This document shows positions 14,818 through 48,051 of a stretch of DNA of 64,000 bases, in pieces. The position numbers were made by a program, and so were the translations under genes. Every line of letters begins with the position of its first letter. Position 1 is the first letter of the stretch. The DNA comes from Paramylibacter ulvae (GTDB lineage Bacteria; Pseudomonadota; Alphaproteobacteria; Rhodobacterales; Rhodobacteraceae), in NCBI RefSeq assembly GCF_014652655.1, contig NZ_BMZF01000001.1, positions 62,001 through 126,000 of the forward strand, written 5' to 3'. The notes beneath the pieces were generated by a model. That model made no database searches and had not been told where the DNA came from. It saw only the letters and a list, made by a program, of their open reading frames with translations.

Positions 14818-15840
14818 ATGGATACGCAAGTGACTGATAAACTTACAAAACTGATCGAAACGCAAGGCTGGGTTCTGGCCGATGGTGCCACGGGAACAAA
14901 CCTGTTTAACGCAGGATTGCAAGCAGGCGAACCACCTGAATTTTGGAACGAAGAGCATCCCGATCGCATCACAGCGCTTTATCAAGGGGCGGTTGATGCA
15001 GGATCTGATCTGTTTTTAACCAATAGCTTTGGTGGCAACGCATCACGTCTTAAACTGCATAACGCAGAAAAACGCGCACATGAATTGTCCAAAATCGCAG
15101 CGGAAATTGGCCGCGAAGTGGCGGATAAATCATCGCGCGATATTATTGTGGCGGGTTCAATGGGGCCAACGGGTGAAATCATGGGGGCGGCGGGCACGCT
15201 TTCGCACGATGATGCCGTTGAAATGTTCCATGAACAAGCCGAAGGTTTGATCGCGGGTGGTGCGGATGTGTTGTGGCTGGAAACGATTTCAGCGCCCGAA
15301 GAATACGCCGCCGCCGCCGATGCAATCGCGCGTACAGGCCATCCATGGGCCGGCACCATGAGCTTTGACACCGCAGGACGCACCATGATGGGTACGACCA
15401 GTGCGGGCATGGTGAAAATGGTGGATGATCTGGATTACGCCCCAATGGCGTTTGGCGCGAATTGCGGTGTGGGCGCATCTGATTTGTTACGCACGGTTCT
15501 GGGTTTTGTTGAGGGCGGCGCAAGCAAGCCGATTATTTCCAAGGGTAACGCAGGCATTCCAAAATATGTTGATGGCCACATTCATTATGATGGCACGCCA
15601 GAATTGATGGCTGAATATGCGGTGATGGCGCGCAATTCCGGTGCAAAAATCATCGGTGGATGTTGTGGAACCATGCCCGACCATTTACGCGCCATGCGCA
15701 AAGCGTTGGAGGAAACACCCGTTGGGAAGGCCCCCACATTGGACGAAATCGCCGCCGCATTAGGTGGGTTTTCATCCGAAAGCGATGGCACAGACGGCGC
15801 TGGCCCAAAACGGCGTGAACGGCGTCGTGGGCGTGGCTAA
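14818..15840 (+). CDS. Homocysteine S-methyltransferase domain protein (split methionine synthase, part 1)
   Basis: A 340-aa protein consisting of the zinc-dependent homocysteine-binding domain only. Family hallmarks are ADGATGTNLF near the N-terminus, GSMGPTGE, and the zinc ligands Cys216 (FGANCGVG) plus Cys282 and Cys283 (IGGCCGT). Annotation pipelines call it betaine-homocysteine methyltransferase, but the next gene is a free-standing B12 protein, and in related Roseobacters such a set acts as a split MetH. The last residues form a basic tail (PKRRERRRGRG) absent from most members. The ATG has no clear Shine-Dalgarno; a GTG four codons later is possible. It would transfer the methyl from methylcobalamin to homocysteine. 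Confidence 0.85.
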   Translation: MDTQVTDKLTKLIETQGWVLADGATGTNLFNAGLQAGEPPEFWNEEHPDRITALYQGAVDAGSDLFLTNSFGGNASRLKLHNAEKRAHELSKIAAEIGREVADKSSRDIIVAGSMGPTGEIMGAAGTLSHDDAVEMFHEQAEGLIAGGADVLWLETISAPEEYAAAADAIARTGHPWAGTMSFDTAGRTMMGTTSAGMVKMVDDLDYAPMAFGANCGVGASDLLRTVLGFVEGGASKPIISKGNAGIPKYVDGHIHYDGTPELMAEYAVMARNSGAKIIGGCCGTMPDHLRAMRKALEETPVGKAPTLDEIAAALGGFSSESDGTDGAGPKRRERRRGRG

Positions 15841-15963
15841 TACGTTAAAAACGTTATGAAAGTCGGTGATTTAGTCGTTTTCGTCGTAAAACGATCAGAA
15901 AATTCACTGATTTTCGAGAATTTGGTACCATAAGCCAGCGGTTGGCGTTGCAAGGATAAGAAC

Positions 15964-16665
15964 ATGTCAGACGAAGAAGAAATCATCCTGTCGGAACTCA
16001 GCGACGAAGAATTGACGTTGCAAATGCACGACGATCTGTATGACGGCATGAAAGAGGAAATCGAAGAGGCGGTTAACATTCTGCTTGAACGCGGTTGGCA
16101 GCCCTATGATGTGCTGACCAAAGCATTGGTCGAAGGAATGCGCATCGTTGGTATCGATTTTCGCGACGGTATTTTGTTTGTGCCAGAGGTGTTATTGGCC
16201 GCGGGTGCCATGAAGGGTGGCATGGCGATCCTGAAACCATTGCTGGCCGAAACGGGTGCGCCGCGTTTGGGTTCGATGGTGATTGGCACGGTGAAAGGTG
16301 ATATTCACGACATCGGCAAAAACCTTGTAACAATGATGATGGAAGGTGCGGGTTTCGAGGTAAAAGACCTTGGCATCAACAACCCCGTTGAAAATTATCT
16401 TGAAGCGCTGGAAACAGGCGAATTCGATATTTTGGGCATGTCCGCATTGTTGACCACAACCATGCCATACATGAAGGTCGTGATTGATACGATGGTCGAA
16501 AAAGGCATGCGCGATGATTTCACCGTGCTTGTCGGTGGGGCGCCATTGAACGAAGAATTTGGCAAGGCGATTGGCGCCGATGCGTATTGCCGTGACGCCG
16601 CTGTTGCCGTGGAAACCGCCAAAGAATTCATGGCAAAAAAACACAACCAGATGGCTGCGGGATAA
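15964..16665 (+). CDS. Free-standing corrinoid (B12-binding) protein (split methionine synthase, part 2)
   Basis: A 233-aa protein with a helical cap domain (about 10-98) and a Rossmann-type B12-binding domain (about 104-225) carrying the DxHxxG signature, Asp113-His115-Gly118, in GTVKGDIHDIGKNL, and the downstream VGGAPLNEEF. The cobalamin would be bound base-off with His115 as the lower ligand. It is placed to shuttle methyl groups between the pterin-domain protein at 45713-46792 and the homocysteine protein upstream. It begins 123 bases after the previous gene and ends one base before DUF1638. The closest relatives by pattern are methyltransferase corrinoid proteins of the MtbC/MttC type. 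Confidence 0.93.
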   Translation: MSDEEEIILSELSDEELTLQMHDDLYDGMKEEIEEAVNILLERGWQPYDVLTKALVEGMRIVGIDFRDGILFVPEVLLAAGAMKGGMAILKPLLAETGAPRLGSMVIGTVKGDIHDIGKNLVTMMMEGAGFEVKDLGINNPVENYLEALETGEFDILGMSALLTTTMPYMKVVIDTMVEKGMRDDFTVLVGGAPLNEEFGKAIGADAYCRDAAVAVETAKEFMAKKHNQMAAG

Positions 16666-16666
16666 C

Positions 16667-17314
16667 ATGGCACAGATCAGCGACAGCGATCTGACGGAAA
16701 CAGGATTAGACGCGCCCAGTGATCCTGCTGGGCGCGTTTTGATTCTGGCCTGTGGTGCGCTTGCGCGTGAAATCCTTGCGCTGATCAAGCTTAATGATTG
16801 GGGGCATATGGATTTAACCTGTTTGCCTGCGAAATTGCACCTATACCCCGATAAAATCACCGATGCAGTTGCGAATGCGGTGGAAAAGCACCGTGCAGAT
16901 TACGATCAGATTTTTGTGGCTTATGCCGATTGTGGAACGGGTGGGATGCTGGCCGCAAAATGCGAACAGCTTGGTGTTGAAATGATCGCAGGCCCCCATT
17001 GTTATTCGTTTTTCGAGGGCAACGAAGCATTTGGCAAATTGGAGGATGAAATCACCGCGTTTTACCTAACCGATTTTTTGGTGAAACAATTTGATGCGTT
17101 TGTGTGGAAACCCATGGGATTGGATCGCCATCCGCAACTGCGCGACGTGTATTTTGGCAATTACACCAAACTGGTTTACCAAGCACAGGTGAATGATCCC
17201 GCATTGGATGCCAAGGCCGCATTGATTGCCGAAAAAATGGGATTGCCGTTGGAACGCCGTTTCACGGGATACGGTGATTTGTCCGTGGCACTTGGCGGAA
17301 TTTTGCGCGGATAG
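16667..17314 (+). CDS. DUF1638 protein coupled to the corrinoid gene
   Basis: A 215-aa protein of the DUF1638 family. A Rossmann-like start (VLILACGALAREILALI) is followed by a conserved Cys/Gly segment (VAYADCGTGGML) and GPHCYSFFEGN with a further conserved Cys-Tyr pair. The ATG comes one base after the corrinoid stop, which implies translational coupling. DUF1638 genes often sit next to corrinoid methyltransferase genes; a role in corrinoid handling, reactivation or methionine synthase function is inferred from this, not shown by the sequence. Downstream lies a 37-bp repeat at 17323-17359. Confidence 0.85.
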   Translation: MAQISDSDLTETGLDAPSDPAGRVLILACGALAREILALIKLNDWGHMDLTCLPAKLHLYPDKITDAVANAVEKHRADYDQIFVAYADCGTGGMLAAKCEQLGVEMIAGPHCYSFFEGNEAFGKLEDEITAFYLTDFLVKQFDAFVWKPMGLDRHPQLRDVYFGNYTKLVYQAQVNDPALDAKAALIAEKMGLPLERRFTGYGDLSVALGGILRG

Positions 17315-17322
17315 ACAAGGGA

Positions 17323-17359
17323 TTATGCCTTCGGCGAGGATATTTTGAACATTTGGAGC
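17323..17359 (+). repeat. 37-bp dispersed intergenic repeat, copy 1
   Basis: Begins TTATGCCTTCGGCGAGG and ends ACATTTGGAGC. It lies 9 bases after the DUF1638 stop. A second copy at 34151-34187 differs at two adjacent positions only (GA versus AG). The GCC-TTC-GGC core can form a tiny hairpin followed by ATATTTT, so it may be a transcript-end element. Both copies begin within 10 bases of a stop codon. Confidence 0.7.
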
Positions 17360-17471
17360 AATGAACGTGGTGAATTTTTGCCAAGTTGATGTGTTCGCGC
17401 AACTGTGATTTTGACCATCGCGAACTGCGCGGTAGGTATTGCCGATGTTATTTAAATCGAAGGGACATCGC

Positions 17472-17924
17472 ATGAAGAACATATTTTTTACATCTGCAAT
17501 AGCTGCATTAGCATTCTCAGGAGCCGCAATGGCCGACACCATGATCACCAAAAATTCGCCTCATTCTGTAAGCGAAACAATTGATCGCATGGCCGCCGCA
17601 GTGGAGGGCGCAGGTGCCAAAGTATTTGCGCGTGTTGATCATGCTGCGGGTGCCAAAAGCGTTGATATGGACTTGCGCCCAACAGAGATGCTGTTGTTTG
17701 GCAATCCAAAGCTTGGCACGCCTGCGATGAATGCGAGCCAGACAATCGGGCTTGATTTGCCGCTGCGCGTATTGGCGTATCAAGTCGAAGATGGCAGCGT
17801 GAAAATCACCTATCGCGCACCAATGGATATGGCACAGGCACATGATGCCGATGCAGATTTAGAAGTGTTTAAAATGATGACAGGTGCTTTGGATAATCTG
17901 ACAAACAAAGCGATTGCAGAATAA
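17472..17924 (+). CDS. DUF302 domain periplasmic protein
   Basis: A 150-aa protein with a signal peptide (MKNIFFTSAIAALAFSGAAM, cut after Ala) and a DUF302 domain over the rest: SVSETIDRMAAAVEGAGAKV, RPTEMLLFGNPKLGTPAM and LPLRVLAYQVEDGSV are typical. DUF302 proteins bind no known ligand with certainty and are uncharacterised. The start follows AAGGGACATCGC. A strong terminator follows at 17945-17982. Confidence 0.88.
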   Translation: MKNIFFTSAIAALAFSGAAMADTMITKNSPHSVSETIDRMAAAVEGAGAKVFARVDHAAGAKSVDMDLRPTEMLLFGNPKLGTPAMNASQTIGLDLPLRVLAYQVEDGSVKITYRAPMDMAQAHDADADLEVFKMMTGALDNLTNKAIAE

Positions 17925-17944
17925 TTTAATCACGCCATGAATTG

Positions 17945-17982
17945 AAAAGAGCGTGCCAATGAATGGCACGCTCTTTTTTTTT
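17945..17982. terminator. Intrinsic terminator between DUF302 and dctD
   Basis: AAAAGAGCGTGCCA pairs perfectly with TGGCACGCTCTTTT around the loop ATGAA, followed by more T. With an A-run on the other side it can stop transcription in both directions, and its end touches the dctD stop codon. Confidence 0.92.
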
Positions 17983-19321
17983 ATCCGACGTAATTTGAAC
18001 GGGTTAACCCGTATTTCGCCATTTTTTCGTTCAATGTTCGCCGTGGCAGGGATAATTCCTCCATCACGGATTGAATAGACCCTTTGTGGCGGCGCATTGT
18101 GTTGTCGATCAACATGCGTTCGAACGCTTCGACATGTTCTTTCAATGGTTTGCCATCGGTCACAACATCGGGTACTTCTTCGCCGACATCGGCCATCAGG
18201 ATATTGGATATGGAATAGCTGCCGCGGCGGCTTTGTAATACGGTGCGTTCGGCCAGATTGATCAACTGGCGGATATTGCCAGGCCAGGGGGCTTGCAACA
18301 ATTTGGCCGCGTCTTCGGCGGAAATTTCGGGTTGTTCGCAACCGTATTCTTCGGAAAAGGTTTCGGCATATCGATTAAACAGGCTCAAAATATCTTCGCC
18401 GCGTTGACGCAAAGGGGGGGGAGTGATGTGCATCGCCGCAAGACGGTAATACAAATCTTGGCGCAAAGCGGATTCAAGGTTTTCGTCGTTATCGCTGGTG
18501 TCATTCGAAATTGCGATAATGCGCAGTGCCGATCCATCTTCGCCACGATCATGTTCGGTAATTTCCGACAACAATCGCGCCTGAATGGATGCGGGCAGGC
18601 TTTCGATATCTTCAAGGCACAACGTACCGCCAAGCGCGTTTTCGACCAGGGGGGTGGAATCATCCAGCGGGCCAAACAGGCGCGTTGTAAGATCATCTTC
18701 GGTATAGGCGGCGCAATTGACCGAAATGAATTTTTTACCTTGGCGTGGGCCACAGGCGTGCAGCGCGTGCGCGATCAGGCTTTTGCCCGTACCGGTTTCG
18801 CCCTTGATCAACAAATGTCCATCGGCCTGTGCCAGATCTAGAATGTCTTCGCGCAGGCGTTCCATCACGGGGCTGGTACCGATCAATTTGCGCAACAATA
18901 CGGTGCCATCGGACAATTCGCGGCGCAGCGTGCGGTTTTCCAACGTGAGGCGGCGCGTATGCACCGCGCGTTTGGTCAATTCCGCCATGCGTTCAGGATC
19001 AAACGGTTTTTCCAAGAAATCATAGGCACCAATGCGCATCGCTTCGACGGCCATCGCAACATCGCCGTGACCCGTGATCAAGATTACGGGCAGTTGGCTG
19101 TCGATGGATTGCAGTTTTTTCAAAAACGTAATGCCATCAATTTTGGGCATTTTGATATCGGAAATGATGATCCCAGAATAATCGCCATCAATCACCTTGA
19201 GCGCATCTTCGGCGCTGGCGAATGTTTTTGTGCGATACCCAGACAGGGTGAGCCATTGCGAAATGCTTTCGCGCATGTCTTGTTCATCATCAACAATAGT
19301 AATTGTAATTTGTTCTGGCAT
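17981..19321 (-). CDS. dctD: DctD-like response regulator lacking the GAFTGA loop
   Basis: A 446-aa NtrC-family regulator with a receiver domain (1-120, phosphoacceptor Asp55 in SDIKMPKIDG), an AAA+ domain (about 145-370) with Walker A GETGTGKS (174-181), and a Fis-type helix-turn-helix (about 395-440, HKGSIQSVMEELSLPRRTLN). Together with dctB it would control C4-dicarboxylate uptake. Unusually, the segment between RLFG (214-217) and GGTL (231-234) is only 13 residues and has no GAFTGA motif, the loop that contacts sigma-54. Walker B reads LCLEDIE rather than the usual hydrophobic-D-E. It follows dctB by 25 bases. No dctPQM transporter is in the window. Confidence 0.85.
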   Translation of the reverse strand: MPEQITITIVDDEQDMRESISQWLTLSGYRTKTFASAEDALKVIDGDYSGIIISDIKMPKIDGITFLKKLQSIDSQLPVILITGHGDVAMAVEAMRIGAYDFLEKPFDPERMAELTKRAVHTRRLTLENRTLRRELSDGTVLLRKLIGTSPVMERLREDILDLAQADGHLLIKGETGTGKSLIAHALHACGPRQGKKFISVNCAAYTEDDLTTRLFGPLDDSTPLVENALGGTLCLEDIESLPASIQARLLSEITEHDRGEDGSALRIIAISNDTSDNDENLESALRQDLYYRLAAMHITPPPLRQRGEDILSLFNRYAETFSEEYGCEQPEISAEDAAKLLQAPWPGNIRQLINLAERTVLQSRRGSYSISNILMADVGEEVPDVVTDGKPLKEHVEAFERMLIDNTMRRHKGSIQSVMEELSLPRRTLNEKMAKYGLTRSNYVG

Positions 19322-19346
19322 ATTTGCTCCGCCAATAATGTGGCTG

Positions 19347-21104
19347 TTATTCAGCCGCGAGTTTTTCCACATTTTCTACTTGTGGCAACTGGAATTCAAA
19401 CACCGCACCCTTGGGCGATACGTTTCTGGCAATTAACCGCCCACCCAAATCCTTGGCAATTCCCGATGAAATGGCAAGGCCAAGGCCAACACCGTCGCCT
19501 GGGTTTTTTGTGGTGAAAAATGGTTCAAATAAATTATTCAAATCGGCAATGCCCGGGCCGTTATCTTGAACGGATAGGGTGGCCATTTCGCCGCTGATCA
19601 GGCTGATCTGAATTTCCTGTTCTTCTTGGCCTTTCATGGCGTCCAGCGCGTTTCGCAACAGGTTCACGATCACCTGTTCCACGCGCACCTGATCACCCAT
19701 GATGATCACGGGCTCGTTTGGTAGTAACGTGTCCACCTGAACCTGACTTTGTCCCAATTGGGGAGACATCATCGACAGGCTGTCGTTCAACGCATCGCGC
19801 AGATCAATGGCGAGCAATTCATCACCACCCTTGCGGGCATAAGATTTAAGCTGTTTGGTGATCGCACCCATACGCCCGATCAAATCATCAATGCGTTGGA
19901 AACTGCTAGCGGCCTCATCTGGGCGATTGCGTTGTAACAACACCTTGGCGCCCGCAAGGTATGTGCGCATGGCGGCCAACGGTTGGTTCAATTCATGGCT
20001 GACAGCGGCGGACATTTCACCAAGTGCGGCCAATTTCGAGCTTTGGGCCAAGCTTTGTTCGGCCACTTCCAATTCACGTTCAGCGCGTTTACGTTGGGTG
20101 ATTTCGCTTGAAAGTTGATCATTCAATGCGCGCAATTCTTCGGATTCCGCCTTGAAAATAAAGGACTGGCGAATGGCGCGGCGTGACAGAGTATAAAACG
20201 CCAAGGATAGCAAGATCGCCAACCCCATGATTTCCAATGCAATCACGCCATTCACGCGTGCACGTACAGGTTCGGATGACGCAAGATAGGTTAATTTCCA
20301 GCCCTGAAACGGAATTTTTGTTTCCAATTGAAACAGGGGTTGCCCCGACAGATACGCATCCGCCACCGCATTTGACCATTCCCCAGTGGCACGAATGGCG
20401 CGTTCAACGGCGGTTAAAACTGGTTTTGCCTCTAAGGCTTGTTGCAAGGATTGATTTCGAAATTGGCGTTCGGTGGACAGGATTACGATGTCTTCCGAAT
20501 TGGTTACCATGATGGTGGATTCCGATCCCGACCATGTATTGAACAGATTGTCCAAATCAACCTCGACCACGATCACGCCAACCAATTCGCCCGCAGAAAT
20601 TAATTTGCGTGAATAGAAAAAGCCAAGCGGACCTTCGCCAACGCCGCGTGCGGTGAATACCGTTTCCGCAGAGCGAAGCGCCTTGGTCATAAATGGTTCA
20701 TCGCGCAACACCGTGCCAAGCTCGCGCCGATCACTGGCGGCCACGGTACGCCCCAATGAATCAAGCAAGAATATCGCTTTGGCCCCGATTTCCTGTCTGG
20801 TTTTGATCAGGCTTTGCGATGAACGTACGTAATCATCGTCATTTAATGCACGCAACAATGTGGTGTCTTGGGATAACAACAGGGGCACAACCGAGCTACG
20901 CTGTAATTCTGCAATCAACCGGCCAGAATACAGGGTGAGCTGTTTTTCAGCATCTGCACGGGTTTGCGCCGAATATTTTTCGGTGAAATACAGATTTGAT
21001 AACCAAATCACCAACCCCGTGGCAATCACAAACAAAAGCACCCCCATGCGCAATGCACTGGGCGTTAGGTTTCGTGAATTTTCAGTAGTGGCAGAGTCTG
21101 TCAT
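19347..21104 (-). CDS. dctB: DctB-like sensor histidine kinase
   Basis: A 585-aa membrane kinase with helix 1 (about 18-38), a periplasmic double-Cache-type sensor domain (about 42-280) containing GPLGFFYSRKL, helix 2 (about 288-308), a coiled coil (about 315-355), HisKA with AAVSHELNQPLAAMRTY and HATPase with LLRNALDAMKGQ and DNGPGIADL. This layout is that of DctB, which senses C4-dicarboxylates. It is the first gene of the dctBD pair. Its ATG is 63 bases from the purQ stop on the same strand, so read-through from the pur genes is possible. Confidence 0.9.
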   Translation of the reverse strand: MTDSATTENSRNLTPSALRMGVLLFVIATGLVIWLSNLYFTEKYSAQTRADAEKQLTLYSGRLIAELQRSSVVPLLLSQDTTLLRALNDDDYVRSSQSLIKTRQEIGAKAIFLLDSLGRTVAASDRRELGTVLRDEPFMTKALRSAETVFTARGVGEGPLGFFYSRKLISAGELVGVIVVEVDLDNLFNTWSGSESTIMVTNSEDIVILSTERQFRNQSLQQALEAKPVLTAVERAIRATGEWSNAVADAYLSGQPLFQLETKIPFQGWKLTYLASSEPVRARVNGVIALEIMGLAILLSLAFYTLSRRAIRQSFIFKAESEELRALNDQLSSEITQRKRAERELEVAEQSLAQSSKLAALGEMSAAVSHELNQPLAAMRTYLAGAKVLLQRNRPDEAASSFQRIDDLIGRMGAITKQLKSYARKGGDELLAIDLRDALNDSLSMMSPQLGQSQVQVDTLLPNEPVIIMGDQVRVEQVIVNLLRNALDAMKGQEEQEIQISLISGEMATLSVQDNGPGIADLNNLFEPFFTTKNPGDGVGLGLAISSGIAKDLGGRLIARNVSPKGAVFEFQLPQVENVEKLAAE

Positions 21105-21167
21105 TATCGTGACAGTCTATAATAACACTGGGGCAGGCGACAAGCGCTGCCCACAGTGTGAATTTTA

Positions 21168-21845
21168 TCAGGCGGAAACAAGCGCAGATGCGATGCTTTC
21201 AAACAGTTTTGAACCATCTGTGCCACCCAATTGGGGATCGTTCAGGCGTTCTGGATGGGGCATCATGCCCAACACACGGCGATTATCCGACAGAATTCCC
21301 GCAATATCATCCATCGAACCGTTTGGATTTTCCGCATAGCGAAACGCAATGCGATCATCGCCAACCAATTTTTTTAACGTTTCAGGATCGGCATTGTAAT
21401 TACCATCATGATGGGCCACTGGAACATTCACAACAGCGCCTTTTTTATAGGCTGATGTGAAAACGCTATCGGTTGTTTCAACACGAAGCCCTGCATCCTT
21501 GCAGATGAATTTCAGGTTTGCGTTGCGCATCAAGGCACCGGGCAATAGGCCAGATTCAGTTAGGACCTGAAAACCATTACACACACCCAAAACAAAACCG
21601 CCCTTGTTGGCGAAATCAACCACCGAACGCATGATTGGGCTGCGTGCGGCGATTGCACCACAGCGCAGGTAATCACCAAATGAAAACCCACCGGGAATTG
21701 CGATGATATCCAAACCATCGGGCAGGGTGCTTTCTTTGTGCCAAATCAACTGTGTTGGTTTGTTGTGGCCAGATACACGATCCATTGCCACCGCCATATC
21801 GCGATCACAGTTAGACCCGGGAAATTGAATGACGGCTGCGCGCAT
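21168..21845 (-). CDS. purQ: Phosphoribosylformylglycinamidine synthase, glutaminase subunit
   Basis: A 225-aa class I glutamine amidotransferase that supplies ammonia to PurL for FGAM synthesis. Visible are [13 protein letters not shown] at the start, the nucleophile Cys89 in LGVCNGFQ, and the His197/Glu199 pair in MMPHPE. It directly abuts purS (the start codon follows the purS stop without a gap). The large subunit purL is not in the window. Confidence 0.98.
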
Positions 21846-22085: not shown

Positions 22086-22094
22086 GGGATTATC

Positions 22095-22856: not shown

Positions 22857-22900
22857 TCGCATCTCCGTAGCGTAGCTGAGTCTTTCGACATTTACGCCAC

Positions 22901-25286: not shown

Positions 25287-25292
25287 GGGTGG

Positions 25293-34188: not shown

Positions 34189-35151
34189 TTACGCGCTGCA
34201 ACTTGCCCCGCCAAGGACACAGAATTTTGCGCAATGAGGATGGTTGAGTTTCACGGGGCGTTCGGCTTGTTCCAGGGTTTCGCCAAGCTCAAATTCAGGC
34301 GTATTTGGCAGGAGCGTGCAGGCAAGCACGGCTGGCTTTTTGGCACCTTTGCGTTTGACCACCATACGCGAGCTAGAACACATCACATCATTTGGAGATT
34401 TGTCCAAAATGGTCCAACAGGCATTCGTAATTTCGGGAACATCCACAGTTTCGTCCATTTCAGGAAAAAGAACTGTTGTGGCAGGGTTGTTTGCGTCAAT
34501 TTTGAAATCATGTTGGGAGAAAAGTTCGGCGTAGCCTGCACGGCTCGTTGCATCGCTATCACCAAATGCGGAACGCCCTGCGACATGCATTTGAAAATCG
34601 TTATCGCGCAGCCATTTCATACCTGCGAGGGTCACATCATAGCTGCCTTTGCCGCGTTCTGCGTCGTGCAGATCAGCGTTGAAATGATCAAGAGAAATGC
34701 GCAGGGTAAGTTTGTCGCCAAATGCATCGCGCAATGCCAACAATCCCGATTGAACCGATTTGCGCATCATCGGGCGCATCGCGTTGGTTAAGATCAAAAC
34801 ATCATAGCCACGTTCAAGGCAAAGCCGTGTAATATCAATCATTTGCGGGTTCATAAACGGTTCACCACCGGTAAATGCTATTTCTGTCGTTGGCCATTTG
34901 CGATCAACAATTTGATCCAGATATCCGCCGACCTCGGACGTGGTGATATAAACCAAACTGTCGTTTTTGGGTGAGCTTTCGATATAACAATTCAAACATT
35001 CGATATTGCACAATGTACCCGTATTAAACCAAAGCGTTGTGGGGTTATTCAACGGAACCGATGCTCGCATATCACCCTTGGCGGTGACATTCGGGTTTTC
35101 AAATTTACCCACAGGTGTTGCACCCAATTTATCGAAATTTTGGTCGTTCAT
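34189..35151 (-). CDS. Orphan radical SAM protein with Cys-rich C-terminus
   Basis: A 320-aa radical SAM enzyme. The Fe-S cluster motif is CNIECLNC (C-x3-C-x2-C, about residues 48-55), followed by TEIAFTGGEPFMNPQ (the SAM-binding GGE). The C-terminal third contains several Cys residues (DVMCSSSRM, VLACTLLP, HPHCAKFCVLGGASCSA) that could bind an auxiliary cluster, as in SPASM or Twitch proteins. No peptide substrate, partner or transporter gene lies beside it: aroB converges on one side and zwf diverges on the other. The substrate is unknown. Cobalamin-binding and methylthiotransferase domains are absent. Confidence 0.85.
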   Translation of the reverse strand: MNDQNFDKLGATPVGKFENPNVTAKGDMRASVPLNNPTTLWFNTGTLCNIECLNCYIESSPKNDSLVYITTSEVGGYLDQIVDRKWPTTEIAFTGGEPFMNPQMIDITRLCLERGYDVLILTNAMRPMMRKSVQSGLLALRDAFGDKLTLRISLDHFNADLHDAERGKGSYDVTLAGMKWLRDNDFQMHVAGRSAFGDSDATSRAGYAELFSQHDFKIDANNPATTVLFPEMDETVDVPEITNACWTILDKSPNDVMCSSSRMVVKRKGAKKPAVLACTLLPNTPEFELGETLEQAERPVKLNHPHCAKFCVLGGASCSA

Positions 35152-39948: not shown

Positions 39949-40097
39949 GCCGCGCTTTCATAGTCGGAGTTTTTACGCTGTGCAATGGGGATTGGTAAAA
40001 ATCTGTTTTGCCACGATGTGCCGCATTGGCTTGGCTTATGCGCTGTGCTAATGCAGCCACTGTTGTAAACATCGGTGTTTGCATTAATGGAATTTCA

Positions 40098-40766: not shown

Positions 40767-40768
40767 CC

Positions 40769-42811
40769 CTAGCCCCGCCGACGGCGACGCCGACCACCAT
40801 TGTCACCACCGCCAGTATTGAAATTAACATTTGGCAATGTCACGATGCTGTCCAATATCGGGAATGGTTCCACGCTATTAGGGATCGCGGATGCATTGAC
40901 AAAATGTTCCTGAAAACGAGGCTCGATCGCCGTTTCGATCTTGTGAATATCACGAACCACTGTTTCAATATCGCGCCGCGCATCGGTGTTTAGCAACGCA
41001 ATCCGCGCACCTGTACCCGCGGCATTGCCCGCCGACGTTACCTTAGCGATTTCGCAATCGGGGATCATGCCCAAAACCATCGCGTGTTTGGGGCTAATGT
41101 GGGCGCCAAACGCGCCTGCCAATACGATGCGGTCAACCTGATCGACCTCGAATTTATCCATCAACAGGCGCGCACCTGAATAGAGTGCTGCCTTGGCCAT
41201 TTGGATTTCGCGAATGTCGCGGTTCGTCACGGTAATCAGTGGGCCGCCATCCGCCGTGCCATCAAAGACGCGATATGAATATGTGCGCCCATCTTGGAAA
41301 CAGCGGTCTGTGCCTGTTTGTTCGGGGGAACCGATCAATCCTGCCTGATCGACAATCCCTGCGATGCGCATTTCGGCAACCATTTCAATGATGCCCGATC
41401 CACAAATCCCCGTAATGCCAGATGACAATATTTCGCGGTCAAACCCATCCTGATCAGACCAAACATCCGATCCAATCACACGAAAACGCGGTTCTTTGGT
41501 GACGGGGTCAATTTCGACGCGTTCAATCGCTCCAGGTGCGGCGCGTTGGCCGCTGGAAATTTGCGCGCCTTCAAATGCCGGGCCCGTGGGTGATGAACAG
41601 GCCAGAACGCGGGTTTTATTGCCAAGCAATATTTCCGCATTCGTGCCCACATCCACCACCAATACTAAATCATCCGATGTGTTTGGCGATTCCGATAATG
41701 CAACGGCGGCGGCATCCGCCCCGACGTGCCCCGCAATACACGGCAGAATATAAATTCGCGCCGCGGGATGGATTTTCAGATCAAGGTTTTTCGCACGTGT
41801 CGATACCGCATCTGATGTTGCCAGTGCGAATGGAGCCTGACCAAGCTCAAACGGATCAATGCCCAAGAACAGATGATGCATCACAGGGTTACATACAAAT
41901 ACCGCATCCAAAATCAGGGCAGGGTCAATTTCGGCCTCTGCCGCGATTTGGGTGAAAAGGGCATTCATGCCTTCGCGCACCGCACGGGTCATTTCAACCG
42001 CGCCGCCTTCGTTCATCATGGAATATGAAACGCGGCTCATCAAATCTTCGCCAAAACGGATTTGGGGATTCATGATACCGTTGCTGGCAACCACTTCGCC
42101 CGTTTGTAAATCACACAGATGCGCGGCGATGGTGGTGGAACCCAGATCAACCGCCATGCCATAAACGGAACCGTCGTAATATCCCGACCAAACCTGAACG
42201 ATGCGCGGGCTGACGTAATCATCGCCCAGATGAACGGCACATGTGACCTTCCAGTCGCCCTTGCGCAGCGCGGATTGTAGGCCGGCGAAAATGGAAAAAT
42301 CGGCTTCTAGCTCTGGTAAATCCCAATCCTTGCGCAATGCCGCGACCAGACGTTCCAGATCACCCGATGGTTCGTGCATGTCGGGTTGTTCAACCTCGAC
42401 ATAAAACAGCTTGGTCGACGGATTGACGATGATATCGCGTGCCTCTGCGCGTTTGCGCACGACTTGTTTGTGCACTTGGCTCTCGGGGGGGACATCGACC
42501 ACGATATTGCCCTGAACCGTCGCCTGACAGCCCAAGCGCCGCCCATCAATCATGCCGCGTTTGGATTTGTATCGCTCCTCGACACTGTTCCATTGTGACA
42601 ATGCGTCGGGCGCAACCGTAAGCCCATGTTTGGAAAATTCACCGTATGAGGGTGTGATTTGGCATTTGGAACAAATCCCACGTCCACCACAGACAGAATC
42701 CAGATCAACCCCCAATTGGCGCGCCGCTGTCAGGATTGGGGTGCCAACGGGAAAATTGCCGCGTTTGCCTGATGGGGTGAAAATAACCAGTGGGTTTTTG
42801 TCTTCGCTCAT
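40769..42811 (-). CDS. Corrinoid reductive activator (RACo/RamA-like, 2Fe-2S plus ASKHA, DUF4445)
   Basis: A 680-aa protein with an N-terminal 2Fe-2S ferredoxin domain (Cys41, Cys47, Cys50 and Cys95), a linker (about 105-205) and a long ASKHA ATPase-like region (about 210-650) with YGMAVDLGSTTIAAHL, VFVCNPVMHHLFLG and VLVVDVGTNAEILLG. This architecture is that of RACo/RamA proteins, which use ATP to drive one-electron reduction of inactive Co(II) corrinoid. In Phaeobacter, mutant data link such a gene to a split methionine synthase. The protein ends in a Gly/Arg tail (GGGDNGGRRRRRRG). It would service the B12 protein at 15964-16665. Confidence 0.9.
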   Translation of the reverse strand: MSEDKNPLVIFTPSGKRGNFPVGTPILTAARQLGVDLDSVCGGRGICSKCQITPSYGEFSKHGLTVAPDALSQWNSVEERYKSKRGMIDGRRLGCQATVQGNIVVDVPPESQVHKQVVRKRAEARDIIVNPSTKLFYVEVEQPDMHEPSGDLERLVAALRKDWDLPELEADFSIFAGLQSALRKGDWKVTCAVHLGDDYVSPRIVQVWSGYYDGSVYGMAVDLGSTTIAAHLCDLQTGEVVASNGIMNPQIRFGEDLMSRVSYSMMNEGGAVEMTRAVREGMNALFTQIAAEAEIDPALILDAVFVCNPVMHHLFLGIDPFELGQAPFALATSDAVSTRAKNLDLKIHPAARIYILPCIAGHVGADAAAVALSESPNTSDDLVLVVDVGTNAEILLGNKTRVLACSSPTGPAFEGAQISSGQRAAPGAIERVEIDPVTKEPRFRVIGSDVWSDQDGFDREILSSGITGICGSGIIEMVAEMRIAGIVDQAGLIGSPEQTGTDRCFQDGRTYSYRVFDGTADGGPLITVTNRDIREIQMAKAALYSGARLLMDKFEVDQVDRIVLAGAFGAHISPKHAMVLGMIPDCEIAKVTSAGNAAGTGARIALLNTDARRDIETVVRDIHKIETAIEPRFQEHFVNASAIPNSVEPFPILDSIVTLPNVNFNTGGGDNGGRRRRRRG

Positions 42812-42930
42812 GGGGCTGCCTTTGTGTTCATTGCAAACCTTCTAGGCTGCTATTTGACCACAGGCAAGACGGCGCAGTGCATCACTTGCGCCGCTTTGGT
42901 GTTCATATTCGCCATGGTGTTGGATTTCGC

Positions 42931-43419
42931 CTAGGCCAATGCCAAAAGCGCATTCAGATCAAGCCGTTCTGTTGTCATTTGCAATTTGCCATTGCCATCG
43001 CGCGGCCATTCATTGCGTGGGCAATCCCAATACAATTCTACGCCGTTTTTATCAGGGTCGCGTAGGTACAACGCCTGTGAAACCCCGTGATCGGATGCAC
43101 CGTCGATTTTATACCCATGATCCAGCAGTCGTTTCAAAATCTGTGCCAAATCTTTGCGGGTGGGATACAAGATCGCCAAATGAAATAACCCAGCCGCACG
43201 CACAGGTGCAGCTGGCATATCGCGGCTATACCAAGTGTTCAGCCCGATATGGTGGTGATAACCACCCGCCGATAAAAATACCGCGTCATCACCCATTTGT
43301 TCGGTAACCTCGAACCCCAACAGATCGCGATAAAATGTCAGTGCGCGTTCGATATTCGCGACCTTTAAATGCACATGTCCAATCGCGGTTTGTGCTGGTA
43401 TTTGATATGTCTCCGTCAT
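42931..43419 (-). CDS. VOC (glyoxalase/extradiol dioxygenase) family protein, CatE-like
   Basis: A 162-aa protein with a vicinal-oxygen-chelate domain: IGHVHLKVANIERALTFYRD at the start (first metal His), GYHHHIGLNTW, LFHLAILYPTRKDL (second His) and the final ligand in DPDKNGVELYWDCP (Glu). The pattern is that of the N-terminal half of CatE-type catechol 2,3-dioxygenases, but at 162 aa it is a single module that would have to dimerise. The substrate is unknown. The ATG at MTETYQIPAQ is chosen; the upstream extension overlaps the neighbouring gene. It lies 119 bases upstream of the reactivator gene. Confidence 0.82.
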   Translation of the reverse strand: MTETYQIPAQTAIGHVHLKVANIERALTFYRDLLGFEVTEQMGDDAVFLSAGGYHHHIGLNTWYSRDMPAAPVRAAGLFHLAILYPTRKDLAQILKRLLDHGYKIDGASDHGVSQALYLRDPDKNGVELYWDCPRNEWPRDGNGKLQMTTERLDLNALLALA

Positions 43420-43501
43420 GATGAAAACTCCTTTGTTCGCCTGAAACATACGCTTAGGATTGCACCATTCAACAAAAAGCAGATAAACAGATTGTTTCCA
43501 A

Positions 43502-44185
43502 TCAGCCGCGCAAAAACGCCATTGGGTCAATATCAAACACCAATATCGCCACGGGAATTGGGGCAACAGCAATCAACAGCATGATCATGATTAATGGCGT
43601 TGTGAACAAGCGGCTGAGCCCTGCGATCAACATGATTCCGCCACCGCCACCCAATAACGCATTGCCTGGAATGGACAGTGCCAAACCTACCAAAACATAG
43701 CGCCCATCAATCACAAAACGGCGTATCGGTTTTGGCAACTGGTCGCGCAACAATCCCACACGTTCTGACGGGGACAGGGGTGCGATACGCTGCAATAAAT
43801 CGCAAGCACGGCGCATGTGCAGATCGCGAAACACCTTGTGCAAAAACCGATAGGGCGTGAATTGCCCAAGCAGAAATGCCAGCAATAACCCCAAAACCGT
43901 GGCGGCGTAAACCAACAGCACAATTTCAGGCCCATGCAACAACATCAAAGACAACGCAATTTCGATTCCGGGGACAAAAGGAATTGAAATCAGTATGATA
44001 TAGGCAATAATTAATCCTGCGATCAACCCGAACATCACATGATCACTCTGTGTTTGTTTGGCCATTTCCATCGACCATGACATCAACCAAAAAATACCTG
44101 CAATGATCAGTGCCAACATTAACAGACGAAAAATCGTGCGCAAAATCGCGTAAAATGTTCTGGGCGGTGAAAAGTGATCCATCAT
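43502..44185 (-). CDS. TVP38/DedA-like (SNARE-associated) membrane protein
   Basis: A 227-aa protein with about five hydrophobic segments (near 15-35, 50-72, 88-108, 165-185 and 195-218). It includes SIPFVPGIEIALSLMLLHGPE, which resembles the re-entrant proline-glycine motif of VTT (TVP38/DedA) proteins, and a later LALSIPGNALLGGGGGIMLI. VTT proteins are thought to move phospholipids across membranes. The family match is by motif only. Two ATGs start the frame. Confidence 0.6.
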   Translation of the reverse strand: MMDHFSPPRTFYAILRTIFRLLMLALIIAGIFWLMSWSMEMAKQTQSDHVMFGLIAGLIIAYIILISIPFVPGIEIALSLMLLHGPEIVLLVYAATVLGLLLAFLLGQFTPYRFLHKVFRDLHMRRACDLLQRIAPLSPSERVGLLRDQLPKPIRRFVIDGRYVLVGLALSIPGNALLGGGGGIMLIAGLSRLFTTPLIMIMLLIAVAPIPVAILVFDIDPMAFLRG

Positions 44186-44459
44186 GCCATGTTGTGCATG
44201 AATTTTGGTGAAAATAACAGGAGAAGTTTAAAAATTACAGCAGATGTCGGAGCCTGTTTCGTGAAAAGATGACATAGCGGAACAAACAAAAAAATGTGAG
44301 CCAACATACCTCGTCTGGGCTTTTTCGTATGTGCATTAGTTTTGCGCAATCGAAAGGGAACCGCTTGACTTTAAGAAAGAGTTAAATAACCTAAAGTTGA
44401 GCTATAGTAATCAAATCAATTTTTACGAGTGAAATTATTTTAATTGACTGGGTGGGGAA

Positions 44460-45428
44460 ATGCCAGACAGTACGATTACACTTTTTGATCCGTTTCTTGG
44501 ATTGGTCAGCGGAAGTGGTGACGCCACGATGTTGTTGACCGATTCTGACGATGATATGTTCGATCTACCTGATCAAACAGGGGATAATCAGGCGGCCTAT
44601 TTGGATGGGTTGTCGGTTACCGTTAACGATATCGAACAGGCGATTGGCCCACAGTTGGTTGTAGCAATGGTTGATGGTTTACAGGTTGAACTGTCATTAA
44701 CCCCAATACGTATCACGGTCGAAGACGGTTTTTTTGACAAAAGCTATGTGTATTTTCCAGGGCTCCCAGAGGGCGCTGAAATTTTGATCGGCCTATCGCT
44801 TCCTCTGTTATTCCCACTGGATGGACAAATTCCGCTGTGTCTTTGTTCAAAAACGCTATTAAAAACTGATCGCGGTTTGAAACCGATTGGGGAAATCTGT
44901 GTTGGCGATATGGTCGCGACGCTTGATAACGGGCATCAAGCAGTGCGTTGGGTGGGCAAGCAATGCGTTGATTTTATGAATAACCCAGAAATGCAAAATC
45001 ACACACCGATTTTGATTCAAAAAAACGCGTTTGGAGAAAATAGACCATTTCAAGAATTGATTCTATCGCCACAACACGCCGTCATGCTTGATGGATGGGA
45101 ACCGCTGGTGTTCACAGGCCAAGACGAAGTGTTTGCGAGTGCAAAGTCGTTGGTGAATGAAACCAGTGTTTGTAACTTGCCAGATTGCACGGAAATTGAA
45201 TATTGTCACATTCTGTTCGATCAGCACCACGTGATATGGGCGCAGGGTCTAACGGTCGAAAGCCTGTTTTTGGGTGACTTAGCAAAAGATCATATTTTGC
45301 ATCAAAAAAGAGCGGAACTGTTGTCAGTATTTCCCGATCTTGACGCATTGCGCAAAAATTTCAAACAGCGTGCCCGCAGCAAAGTAAAACCGTATGAAGT
45401 TGCTGCGATGTATGAAATTTGTGTTTGA
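44460..45428 (+). CDS. Hint (Hedgehog/intein) domain protein
   Basis: A 322-aa protein. Residues 1-120 are acidic with no recognised fold. A Hint domain starts at Cys127: the CLCSKTLLKTDRGLKPIGEI segment matches the block-A pattern C-x4-T, followed by VGDMVATLDNGHQAVRWVG, then LSPQHAVMLDGWEPLVF (the S-x-x-H block), and a tail rich in Lys/Arg. This is the Hint_2-type module common in alphaproteobacterial secreted proteins, expected to self-process at the Cys. No signal peptide is visible and the N-terminus lacks RTX repeats, so how it is exported, if at all, is unclear. It lies alone between the VOC/reactivator unit and the pterin methyltransferase unit. Confidence 0.8.
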   Translation: MPDSTITLFDPFLGLVSGSGDATMLLTDSDDDMFDLPDQTGDNQAAYLDGLSVTVNDIEQAIGPQLVVAMVDGLQVELSLTPIRITVEDGFFDKSYVYFPGLPEGAEILIGLSLPLLFPLDGQIPLCLCSKTLLKTDRGLKPIGEICVGDMVATLDNGHQAVRWVGKQCVDFMNNPEMQNHTPILIQKNAFGENRPFQELILSPQHAVMLDGWEPLVFTGQDEVFASAKSLVNETSVCNLPDCTEIEYCHILFDQHHVIWAQGLTVESLFLGDLAKDHILHQKRAELLSVFPDLDALRKNFKQRARSKVKPYEVAAMYEICV

Positions 45429-45712
45429 TTTGAGGTTGTTTTGAGACTTCGCAAATACGATGTGGAAAACTTAATTCCAGCTGTACGATTATTTGCGAAG
45501 GCGCGGAATAAGGCATTGAAAATTGGTTTTATAGACTACGGGGTGCAATACGTTCTGTAAAACGAATTTTGGATACCCTTGGCCAACGGATTGCATATCC
45601 ATATTTGAGGCACTTAAACTCTTTGAAAGACGCTATAATTAAACTATATCAGGTCTAACATGTTAGTTAAGCCAGCATCCAAACCGAATGCTAGCCATAA
45701 TTTCAAACGTTG

Positions 45713-46792
45713 TTAACCGCGACGACGGCCGCGGCCACCGCGACGGCCGCGTGCGCCTGCTTCTACACCACCATCGTCGACCTTGTTAAACTTGATCCAT
45801 TCCGATCCGTTTGCGTCTTGGTCGATCAGGAAATTGGCGGCGCGGATTGCTTCCATTTCTTTGCCTGGGGTGTATTTGGTGGAACCCATGCCGGTAAGTT
45901 TCGCGAGCATCTCTGGATCAATATCATCGGGTACGATAATGCCAGCGGCGGCGAGTTCGTCCAATTTGGCTTGGATTTTTTTCGGGCCAACAGGGATTTG
46001 AACAGGGTTCATAATCGCAGATGTCATCCCAGCAGTCATCGCCATTGGCAAAAACGCATTGTTCACACCGTGGCGGTTAGGCAGGCCGAATGAAATGTTG
46101 GATGCACCACAGGTCGTGTTCACGCCCAATTCTTCGCGCAGTTTACGCACCAAGGCGAACACTTGGTTGCCCGCAGAACCCATTGCACCAATCGGCATCA
46201 CCAGTGGATCGACCACAATGTCATGCGCAGGAATGCCATAATCGGCGGCATGTGCCACGATTTTTTTGGCCACGGCAAAACGAACCTCTGGGTCCTCTGA
46301 AATGCCAGTTTCATCATTTGAAATCGCCACAACTGGGACGTTGTATTTTTTAACCAGTGGCAGAACCTTTTCCAGGTTTTCCACTTCGCCCGTCACGGAA
46401 TTGACCAAGGGGCGTCCGTTACAGGCCTGTAATCCAGCCTCAAGTGCGGCGGGAACCGAGCTATCGATGCACAACGGCGTTTCGACGGTGTTTTGCACCA
46501 GTTCGATCAATTGGCGCATCAAGGGTGGCTCGACAAAGTTATTGTCGGCATATCGTACGTCTTCGGCCATTTTGTTGCTGAAAACAGCGCCTGAGTTGAT
46601 ATCCAATACGCCAGCACCCGCCAAGGTTTGCGCAATCGCATCGCGTTCCACAGATGAAAAATCACCTGCTTCGAGTTCGGCGTTCAAAATTTTGCGCCCC
46701 GTGGGGTTGATCCGTTCCCCGATCACGCAAAAGGGTTGGTCAAAACCGATGATCGCTGTTTTGGTTTTGCTCTCGATAATGGTGCGTGTCAT
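45713..46792 (-). CDS. Methyltetrahydrofolate:corrinoid methyltransferase (split methionine synthase, part 3)
   Basis: A 359-aa protein with a pterin-binding TIM barrel: VIGERINPTGRKILNAEL, LDINSGAV, PLCIDSSVPAALEAGL, LVNSVTGE, VVDPLVMPIGAM and the NISFGLPNRH segment. It corresponds to the folate domain of MetH as a separate protein. The C-terminus (about 290-359) is an extension ending in a Gly/Arg tail (GARGRRGGRGRRRG). It lies directly downstream of metF (10 bases) in a unit with the 'virulence factor' gene. It would transfer the methyl of methyltetrahydrofolate to the free B12 protein. Confidence 0.93.
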   Translation of the reverse strand: MTRTIIESKTKTAIIGFDQPFCVIGERINPTGRKILNAELEAGDFSSVERDAIAQTLAGAGVLDINSGAVFSNKMAEDVRYADNNFVEPPLMRQLIELVQNTVETPLCIDSSVPAALEAGLQACNGRPLVNSVTGEVENLEKVLPLVKKYNVPVVAISNDETGISEDPEVRFAVAKKIVAHAADYGIPAHDIVVDPLVMPIGAMGSAGNQVFALVRKLREELGVNTTCGASNISFGLPNRHGVNNAFLPMAMTAGMTSAIMNPVQIPVGPKKIQAKLDELAAAGIIVPDDIDPEMLAKLTGMGSTKYTPGKEMEAIRAANFLIDQDANGSEWIKFNKVDDGGVEAGARGRRGGRGRRRG

Positions 46793-46802
46793 TTGTATTC
46801 CT

Positions 46803-47726
46803 TTAGGATTGAACGGCGGGAACGCCTGATGCGCCGCCGTGGGTCATTGCCCAAGTTGCATTTGTTTTGATCCCGCCGAGCGGGAAAAAATGAACCTGTG
46901 CAATGTTGAAATCTGGGTTTGCGGCCTTGTGCTCGGCCAATTCTGTGATGATGTCATTTGGTTCAAACGGTAACATCAATTTTGTTACATCCTTTGCGCG
47001 GCGTTGCAATACGCGCAGGCTTGGCCCCACACCACAGGCAATGGCGAATTTCACCATTGTTTGCAATTTTGCAGGACCCGCGATGCCGATATGAACCGGA
47101 ATATCAATGCCTTGGGCCACAAGGTTATTGGCCCATTCAATCACGGGTTCGCTTTCGAAACAAAACTGTGTGGCGATGGCCATGTGCGCATCGGTGCGTT
47201 TGGAAAATTCCTGTTTCCAAGACAATGCCGCATCAACATTTTTGCGCGTTCCATCGGGATCAATATCGCGATTTCCCTCTGGGTGACCCGCGACATGCAA
47301 ATTGGTGAAACCCGCACGATCAAACAAACCTGTTTCCAGCAACTGCATAGATGTTTCAAAATCACCTTGTGGTGCATCTAAACCACCCGCGAGCAACAAA
47401 GCCTGTTTTACACCTGCCTCGTTGGCATAACGTGAAATCCATGTTTCCAAGGTTGCGCGATCCTTGATGATACGCGCAGGAAAATGGGGCATCACATCGT
47501 AACCCTCATCGGTGATACGTTTGGCGGTTGCCACCATATCATCAATCGGGGTGCCATCAATATGGGCGATGTAAACGCGCGTACCAGATGGGAGCAGGGC
47601 GCGAAAATCTTCTACCTTGGCGGCGGTGCGCGGCATCACCTCGATCGAGTAACCCTGCAGAAATGATTCCACATTTGGATTGACTGAATCCGTCACCATT
47701 TTTGGTTTAAGATTGAACAATGACAT
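46803..47726 (-). CDS. metF: Methylenetetrahydrofolate reductase
   Basis: A 307-aa flavoenzyme that makes 5-methyltetrahydrofolate. The barrel motifs are visible: SIEVMPRTAAKV (in place of the usual SFEFFPP), YIAHIDGTPIDD, ALLLAGGLDAPQGD, LHVAGHPEGNRD and ATQFCFESEPV. It is a divergent form of the family, as is common in Roseobacters. The start at MSLFNLKPKM is chosen because the upstream frame overlaps the preceding gene. It lies between the 'virulence factor' gene (28 bases upstream) and the pterin methyltransferase. Confidence 0.88.
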   Translation of the reverse strand: MSLFNLKPKMVTDSVNPNVESFLQGYSIEVMPRTAAKVEDFRALLPSGTRVYIAHIDGTPIDDMVATAKRITDEGYDVMPHFPARIIKDRATLETWISRYANEAGVKQALLLAGGLDAPQGDFETSMQLLETGLFDRAGFTNLHVAGHPEGNRDIDPDGTRKNVDAALSWKQEFSKRTDAHMAIATQFCFESEPVIEWANNLVAQGIDIPVHIGIAGPAKLQTMVKFAIACGVGPSLRVLQRRAKDVTKLMLPFEPNDIITELAEHKAANPDFNIAQVHFFPLGGIKTNATWAMTHGGASGVPAVQS

Positions 47727-47754
47727 GGCCTGACCCACCCTTGCTAGAAAAGAT

Positions 47755-48051
47755 TTACGCCCAGCCGTCATTGGCAATCAGCGTTTTTAATTTTTCCTGA
47801 TCAAACTCTTTATCCAGCAGTTCAGCTTGGTCTTTTGCGACTTGATCTTGATCGCCTTCGACGTCGAACGGTTCTGCCTTGCGCCATTCGGCAAGATAGG
47901 CATCCGTATCCTGCGCGCCAATTTTCATCGCGCAACGATCGATCGCCTGTTCAAAGCGTTCGGGCAATTGCACCTTTGCGCCACGTCGGCCTTTGCCAAC
48001 AATGACCTGTGCGGGAATATCGCGCCAATATACGATTGTGACTGCTGGCAT
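47755..48051 (-). CDS. 'Virulence factor' family small protein (PF13769 type)
   Basis: A 98-aa soluble protein: VTIVYWRDIPAQVIVGKGRR at the start, then PERFEQAIDRCAMKIGAQDT and DAYLAEWRK, and a long acidic C-terminal part. The pattern is that of the small 'virulence factor' domain family, whose name comes from an old annotation, with no known biochemical role. In Rhodobacterales it recurs beside metF and the pterin methyltransferase, as here. It heads the metF unit, so a role in methionine or folate/corrinoid metabolism is inferred from context only. Confidence 0.85.
   Translation of the reverse strand: MPAVTIVYWRDIPAQVIVGKGRRGAKVQLPERFEQAIDRCAMKIGAQDTDAYLAEWRKAEPFDVEGDQDQVAKDQAELLDKEFDQEKLKTLIANDGWA

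What the first reader, a model, noticed from the sequence alone, without database searches (positions are those of the whole stretch)
14818..48051. Methionine synthase split into separate proteins at three loci, with its own reactivator
MetH normally joins the homocysteine, folate, B12 and reactivation domains in one chain. Here they are separate: homocysteine domain (14818-15840), B12 domain (15964-16665), folate domain (45713-46792), plus metF (46803-47726) and a RACo/RamA-like ATP-dependent reactivator (40769-42811). No MetE and no intact MetH is visible. The sequence shows the domains and their conserved residues; that they act together is inferred from established knowledge of a similar split system in Phaeobacter.
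Basis: partly seen in the sequence, partly recalled or inferred. Interest (0 to 1): 0.75.

Follow-up and report, generated by a model that had tools for sequence, protein, structure and literature searches.

The report
Split methionine synthase with arginine tails
This bacterium probably makes methionine with a vitamin-B12 enzyme that is cut into separate proteins, a known arrangement; what looks new is that the proteins expected to work on the shared B12 carrier have arginine-rich tails while the carrier begins with a strongly acidic stretch, which may be how the loose parts find each other.

Summary
Homocysteine (MtgE), cobalamin (MtgC) and pterin (MtgD) modules, a RACo/RamA-like reactivator and a metF paralogue are separate genes at the stated places. 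Family searches of the 25-contig genome (rated 100% complete) find no MetE or MetH activation domain, and one homocysteine and one cobalamin-cap domain. The system is published (Price 2018; Mausz 2025) and also demethylates glycine betaine.

Apparently unreported: MtgE, MtgD and RamA end, and the three MtgB begin, with Arg-rich tails; MtgC begins with an acidic, leucine-patterned extension. In loci fetched from a 142-genome class sample, tails occur in 22/25 MtgE, 26/27 MtgD, 24/27 RamA and 83/92 MtgB, against 0/23 DUF1638, 0/12 MetF2 and 6/171 background C-termini. The extension is in 118/118 scored MtgC orthologues and 0/10 other corrinoid proteins. The few homologues next to other corrinoid proteins mostly lack tails. 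Low-GC loci keep arginine.

Best reading: an ordinary split methionine synthase whose partners probably dock on the acidic end of one shared B12 carrier. Docking is inferred, not shown.

The parts
14818..15840 (+). mtgE/bmt: homocysteine S-methyltransferase module (340 aa)
   Evidence: PF02574 2.1e-59; NF005718 'betaine--homocysteine S-methyltransferase' 3.5e-168; only PF02574 hit in the genome
15808..15837 (+). Arg-rich C-terminal tail of MtgE (KRRERRRGRG)
   Evidence: five Arg in 14 residues in 22 of 25 class-sample and 55 of 57 named orthologues
15964..16665 (+). mtgC: cobalamin-binding hub (233 aa)
   Evidence: PF02310 and PF02607; only PF02607 hit in the genome
15964..16032 (+). acidic N-terminal extension of MtgC (MSDEEEIILSELSDEELTLQMHD)
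   Evidence: sequence matches to solved corrinoid proteins start at MtgC residue 14 or later; pattern in 118 of 118 scored orthologues, 0 of 10 other corrinoid proteins
16667..17314 (+). DUF1638 protein, directly behind mtgC; a methionine gene in Phaeobacter
   Evidence: PF07796 1.5e-31; a DUF1638 gene is present in 78 of 80 named mtgC loci
40769..42811 (-). RamA/RACo-like ATP-dependent corrinoid reactivator (680 aa)
   Evidence: RACo_C_ter 2.3e-85, Raco_middle, RACo_linker, Fer2
40772..40798 (-). Arg-rich C-terminal tail of RamA (GGRRRRRRG)
   Evidence: 24 of 27 class-sample and 15 of 15 named orthologues
45713..46792 (-). mtgD: pterin-binding (methyl-H4folate:corrinoid methyltransferase) module (359 aa)
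   Evidence: PF00809 8.8e-24; NF005719 5.9e-114
45716..45757 (-). Arg-rich C-terminal tail of MtgD (GARGRRGGRGRRRG)
   Evidence: 26 of 27 class-sample orthologues; 7 of 16 named at the same cut-off and 16 of 16 at four Arg
46803..47726 (-). metF2-like gene behind mtgD; no arginine tail
   Evidence: no Pfam hit, weak TIGR00676 hit; same place as SPO1862 behind mtgD in Ruegeria (PMC12478193)

Best explanation
The genes encode the known MtgCDE methionine synthase of Rhodobacteraceae, which also serves glycine betaine demethylation. MtgD moves a methyl group from methyl-H4folate to cob(I)alamin on MtgC, MtgE moves it on to homocysteine, and RamA (with DUF1638, role unknown) reduces cobalamin that has fallen to the Co(II) state. 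In the reverse direction MtgB-type enzymes elsewhere in the genome load MtgC from betaines, and MtgD plus MetF2 drain the methyl into folate metabolism. MtgC is a single shared hub. The proteins predicted to touch it (MtgE, MtgD, RamA, three MtgB) carry Arg-rich tails, and MtgC carries a conserved acidic extension. The likeliest role of these is mutual docking that replaces the covalent linkers of MetH. Shown here: gene content, absence of the other synthase families searched, conservation and distribution of tails and extension. Known from related species: phenotypes and proposed reactions. Inferred: function in this organism (about 0.9) and docking (about 0.5).
For: Domain content; no MetE or MetH activation domain in the genome and single PF02574 and PF02607 hits; genetics of the Phaeobacter and Ruegeria systems. 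Co-occurrence in 142 class genomes: MtgC at 70% identity or more in 26, MtgD in 26, both in 24 (counted by eye, tested). Tail counts without duplicates against 6 of 171 C-termini and 5 of 171 N-termini of annotated background genes. In a screen of 48 conserved gene clusters around mtgC in the 80 named loci, not told which genes belong, only RamA (15 of 15) and MtgE (98% of 56) had five-Arg C-tails in most members. MtgC extension 118 of 118 against 0 of 10, net charge about -13. Extension and MtgD tail persist outside the class, in Azoarcus and G218.
Against: MtgC and its partners nearly always occur together, so tails could follow lineage rather than binding. Purified Phaeobacter Bmt (MtgE) makes methionine from betaine or DMSP without B12 in vitro (PMC12366255, passages). 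Tails are missing in some members (MtgE L051, L053; MtgD L029, broken frame; RamA L083; MtgB L165) or moved inward (RamA L065, L084). L151, an MttB paralogue with its own corrinoid gene, counts as tailed although its start is unclear. The tail-less haloarchaeal cluster L320 has a corrinoid protein with an acidic start too (-11), though without the pattern.
Confidence: 0.85

Rival explanations
1. MtgE works alone as a betaine/DMSP:homocysteine methyltransferase, and MtgC, MtgD, RamA and MtgB form only a catabolic betaine demethylase.
For: Purified P. inhibens Bmt makes methionine from betaine and DMSP in vitro without B12 or folate (PMC12366255, passages); MtgE is named betaine--homocysteine S-methyltransferase by NCBIfam.
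Against: mtgC and mtgD mutants are methionine auxotrophs in Ruegeria, and mutants of the three modules, the RamA-like and the DUF1638 gene in Phaeobacter are rescued by methionine; Mausz et al. state that marine Bmt homologues of this type lack the betaine-binding residues of human Bhmt.
Confidence: 0.08
2. The tails are real but bind something other than MtgC, for example RNA, acidic lipid or folate polyglutamate, and place the pathway in the cell.
For: Arg/Gly-rich stretches are common nucleic-acid or condensate motifs (recalled); tails are conserved by composition rather than order.
Against: By their proposed reactions, what MtgE, MtgD, RamA and MtgB have in common is the corrinoid protein (inference); MetF2, which also uses folate, has no tail (0 of 12 and 0 of 3); RACo relatives L088, L089, L320, L321 and the MttB paralogue L150, all beside corrinoid proteins without the MtgC pattern, have no tail.
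Confidence: 0.3
3. The tails are a composition artefact of high-GC genomes or of read-through gene ends.
For: Arg codons are GC-rich, and 179 of 311 tail regions come from loci above 62% GC.
Against: In loci below 48% GC, tails keep R/(R+K) 0.88 while the protein bodies have 0.48 (15 of 311 tail regions); background genes 6 of 171; operon neighbours DUF1638 (0 of 23; 1 of 78) and MetF2 (0 of 12; 0 of 3) lack tails.
Confidence: 0.03

Closest known systems
Three-part methionine synthase of Phaeobacter inhibens (PGA1_c13370, c16040, c13350) with RamA-like c15200 and DUF1638 c13340 (PMC5764234)
   Same: Same five kinds of protein; by locus numbers MtgE, MtgC and DUF1638 close together, RamA-like and pterin genes apart; no PF02965
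   Different: In the window 123 bases separate mtgE and mtgC, without the radical-SAM gene (c13360) that the locus numbers place there in Phaeobacter. The main text has no mention of 'tail' or 'arginine-rich'
MtgBCDE of Ruegeria pomeroyi DSS-3 (PMC12478193)
   Same: MtgC, MtgD with metF2 next to it, MtgE, RamA, DUF1638, several MtgB-type genes
   Different: Three PF06253 genes found here; the dual use is inferred, not tested. The main text has no mention of 'tail' or 'arginine'
Classical MetH
   Same: Same order of chemistry (recalled); homologous modules
   Different: One chain with covalent linkers and its own PF02965 activation domain, which this genome lacks
MtaBC and MttBC complexes of methanogens (PMC9842639, passages)
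   Same: An additional N-terminal domain of MtaC fits a groove between MtaB subunits: precedent for an extension of the corrinoid protein that helps recruit its partner
   Different: A domain for one partner, not a short acidic stretch facing arginine tails on several partners; MttC lacks it
Glycine betaine methyltransferase MtgB (2qne, 9yce) and RACo (3zyy) of anaerobes
   Same: Homologous cores
   Different: The aligned cores start at residue 18 (2qne) and 3 (9yce) of the chain, and the RACo match ends 3 residues before its chain end, leaving little room for a tail; crystallised constructs may be trimmed, and I did not read those terminal residues

Membership tests
Split methionine synthase (Price 2018) | Separate PF02574, PF00809 and PF02607+PF02310 proteins | tested here: met
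Split methionine synthase (Price 2018) | No PF02965, and DUF4445/RACo-type reactivator present | tested here: met
Split methionine synthase (Price 2018) | DUF1638 protein next to the cobalamin protein | tested here: met
   16667-17314
Split methionine synthase (Price 2018) | Genes needed for growth without methionine | not testable with these tools
   needs mutants
MtgBCDE (Mausz 2025) | PF06253 MtgB-type genes in the same genome | tested here: met
   three
MtgBCDE (Mausz 2025) | metF2 next to mtgD | tested here: met
   46803-47726 next to 45713-46792; separate MTHFR on C10
MtgBCDE (Mausz 2025) | MtgC and MtgD needed for growth on glycine betaine | not testable with these tools
   needs mutants
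Classical MetH | Modules in one chain with PF02965 | tested here: not met
MetE | PF01717 domain somewhere in the genome | tested here: not met
   PF08267 was not searched

The most novel reading that the evidence does not exclude
The Arg-rich tails of MtgE, MtgD, RamA and the MtgB paralogues are a common client tag that docks on the acidic N-terminal extension of MtgC. One corrinoid hub thereby serves many unrelated enzymes, and a short electrostatic tag replaces the covalent linkers of MetH. New betaine methyltransferases can join the hub by acquiring the tag.
Probability: 0.5. Interest if true: 0.75.

Novelty: new member of a known kind. Interest (0 to 1): 0.5.

Why it matters
The split synthase itself is published. 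The tails would answer a point left open in the texts I read: how separate enzymes (in some genomes at least nine MtgB copies besides MtgE, MtgD and RamA) reach one B12 protein without being fused to it. They would also give a sequence mark for telling which of many uncharacterised MttB-type proteins use MtgC, and a simple, testable rule for building multi-enzyme hubs, seen in abundant marine bacteria.

Tried and rejected
Looked for a riboswitch near mtgE: only three tRNAs in the window at gathering scores, and one chance-level match at lax scores in 14500-16000. Tested whether the window's radical-SAM-like gene (34189-35151) is the one expected between mtgE and mtgC: no homologue among the ORFs of the fetched loci. 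A first background from naive gene calls (63 of 1148 C-termini, a net-charge rule) was dropped because spurious ORFs in GC-rich loci displaced real genes (34 MtgC found in 80 loci); annotated genes replaced it. The screen could not judge N-terminal tails because starts were miscalled, so it did not pick out MtgB. A net-charge rule gives slightly different counts (for example RamA 23 of 30, which includes L088 and L089; MetF2 1 of 16). The MtgC pattern was written after seeing alignment A1, so 118 of 118 describes more than it tests; of the 10 other proteins, L119 and L060 are MetH chains and L120 is a longer chain. P values treat related sequences as independent and are not literal. MtgB counts use up to 55 residues before the core and may include untranslated residues. 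My first MtgB counts (88 of 97; 28 of 28) held duplicates of the same genes; removes them (83 of 92; 25 of 25). For MtgB I fetched loci for about 92 of the 125 match rows, a list itself capped at nine per genome, and 28 best-scoring new loci. Sequences below the identity limit, open at a locus end or not reaching the core were left out before counting, as listed (class sample: 1 MtgE, 3 RamA and no MtgD by identity; 1, 22 and 1 open; 4 MtgB; 3 DUF1638 open). L029 (broken frame) is counted as lacking a tail.

Literature searches for such tails showed nothing relevant in the rows listed, which were 15 of 42, 15 of 27, 10 of 207, 1 of 1, 2 of 2 and 10 of 215 papers. The main texts of PMC12478193 and PMC5764234 do not contain 'tail' or 'docking', nor 'arginine' and 'arginine-rich' respectively. 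Supplements were not open to me, and most subscription papers are not held.
Full report
WHAT IS THERE. The window is G000:C1:62001-126000 of a 3.17 Mb, 25-contig genome rated 100% complete. The nearest named mtgC loci are two Amylibacter MAGs (90 and 89%) and other Rhodobacteraceae, so the organism is probably a Rhodobacteraceae bacterium (inference). A DUF1638 gene follows mtgC directly (16667-17314).

NO OTHER SYNTHASE FOUND. Whole-genome searches find no PF01717 (MetE), no PF02965 (MetH activation), a single PF02574 and a single PF02607. The same searches ring in 9, 10, 7 and 9 of 14 control genomes (PF02574, PF01717, PF02965, PF02607), so they work. The assembly is not closed and PF08267 was not searched. 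Three PF06253 (MttB/MtgB family) genes lie outside the window.

WHAT IS KNOWN. Price et al. 2018 (PMC5764234; passages and section 11) showed with mutant fitness data that the same three modules, a RamA-like DUF4445 protein and a DUF1638 protein give P. inhibens its methionine synthesis. Mausz et al. 2025 (PMC12478193; abstract, first part of Results, section 7 and Discussion) showed that mtgC and mtgD of R. pomeroyi are needed both for methionine synthesis and for growth on glycine betaine, with metF2 next to mtgD, and argued that the system did not derive from MetH. A 2025 paper (PMC12366255; passages) reports that purified Bmt (MtgE) can use betaine or DMSP directly in vitro. The finding itself is therefore an ordinary new member of a known system.

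WHAT SEEMS NEW. In this genome MtgE ends in KRRERRRGRG, MtgD in GARGRRGGRGRRRG and RamA in GGRRRRRRG, and the three MtgB proteins begin with Arg/Gly-rich stretches (the start of the one in L003 is uncertain). MtgC begins with MSDEEEIILSELSDEELTLQ; sequence matches to solved corrinoid homologues begin at MtgC residue 14 or later.

CONSERVATION. In a class-wide sample of 142 genomes, MtgD occurs in 26, MtgC at 70% identity or more in 26, RamA at 48% or more in 26 (28 with two distant ones) and PF06253 in 30. With the rule 'five Arg in 14 residues' (within the last 25 residues, or within 55 before the MtgB core), counted without duplicates in the loci I fetched, tails are found in MtgE 22 of 25, MtgD 26 of 27, RamA 24 of 27 and MtgB 83 of 92 (89 of 92 with four Arg), against DUF1638 0 of 23 and MetF2 0 of 12. 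RamA rises to 26 of 27 if four Arg anywhere in the last 60 residues behind the core count. In 80 named loci: MtgE 55 of 57, MtgD 7 of 16 (16 of 16 with four Arg), RamA 15 of 15, MtgB 18 of 18, DUF1638 1 of 78, MetF2 0 of 3. Another 25 of 25 distinct MtgB genes from the loci of a phylum-wide search have tails. Background: 6 of 171 annotated C-termini and 5 of 171 N-termini; with four Arg these become 16 and 30 of 171, so the four-Arg figures mean less, above all for N-termini.

SPECIFICITY. A screen of 48 conserved gene clusters around mtgC in the named loci, not told which genes belong, found five-Arg C-tails in most members only for RamA (15 of 15) and MtgE (98% of 56); MtgD followed (44% of 16) and no other cluster exceeded 31%. 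It could not judge N-termini. Homologues that sit with other corrinoid proteins are few and mostly lack tails: RACo relatives L088 and L089, L320 and L321, and the MttB paralogue L150, with its own corrinoid gene next door, in genome G079, whose other fetched MtgB copies have tails. L152, with no corrinoid gene in the fetched stretch, also lacks one. L151 has its own corrinoid gene and counts as tailed, but its start is unclear; it may count against. A protein beside L089's reactivator ends in a moderately basic stretch, slightly against. The MtgC pattern is in 118 of 118 scored orthologues (one cut fragment not scored) and 0 of 10 other corrinoid proteins, among them MetH chains. The net charge of its first 34 or so residues averages -13 (range -15 to -9, n = 117); 10 other sequences range from -11 to 0, the most acidic being haloarchaeal.

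ARGININE, NOT GC. In loci below 48% GC the tails have R/(R+K) 0.88 against 0.48 in the protein bodies (15 of 311 tail regions, no filter on tail content). Length and order of the tails vary, which fits selection on composition. Azoarcus sp. KH32C (Betaproteobacteria) and G218 (outside the class) keep the acidic extension and the tail on MtgD; Azoarcus also on RamA, and G218 on its MtgB. The RamA gene of G218 runs off the stretch that I fetched and could not be judged.

MECHANISM. The simplest account is that the tails let many enzymes reach one corrinoid carrier. The cap-domain carrier is single in this genome, up to nine listed MtgB copies occur in other genomes, and in methanogens an N-terminal extension of MtaC helps dock its methyltransferase (PMC9842639, passages). 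Direct binding is not shown. Structure prediction was tried and was not available.

Noticed in passing
L320 5860-10566 (Halomicrococcus gelatinilyticus plasmid): A haloarchaeal cluster annotated as corrinoid protein, ASKHA protein, DUF1638 and MtrH, without an arginine tail on the ASKHA protein; DUF1638 seems tied to corrinoid/reactivator pairs more widely than to the tailed system.
   Followed up: partly
L151 1075-3425 (genome G087): MttB-type gene next to its own corrinoid gene that lacks the acidic pattern; a possible Arg-rich start depends on an uncertain start codon and could be a counterexample.
   Followed up: partly
L089 410-1462 (genome G125): Protein beside a tail-less ASKHA reactivator and a corrinoid protein without the pattern; it ends in a moderately basic stretch.
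   Followed up: no
L319 21951-22289 (S. meliloti pSymB): Small hypothetical protein between mtgD and the reactivator with a basic C-terminus; possible further part.
   Followed up: no
window 34189-35151 -: Radical-SAM-like protein (by eye) with no homologue among ORFs of the fetched loci; not the gene expected between mtgE and mtgC.
   Followed up: partly
window 44460-45428 +: Protein with a Hint/intein-like stretch (CSKTLLKTDRGLKPIGEICVGD), by eye only.
   Followed up: no
window 8798-10705 -: Protein rich in glycine/aspartate repeats of the calcium-binding RTX type, by eye only.
   Followed up: no
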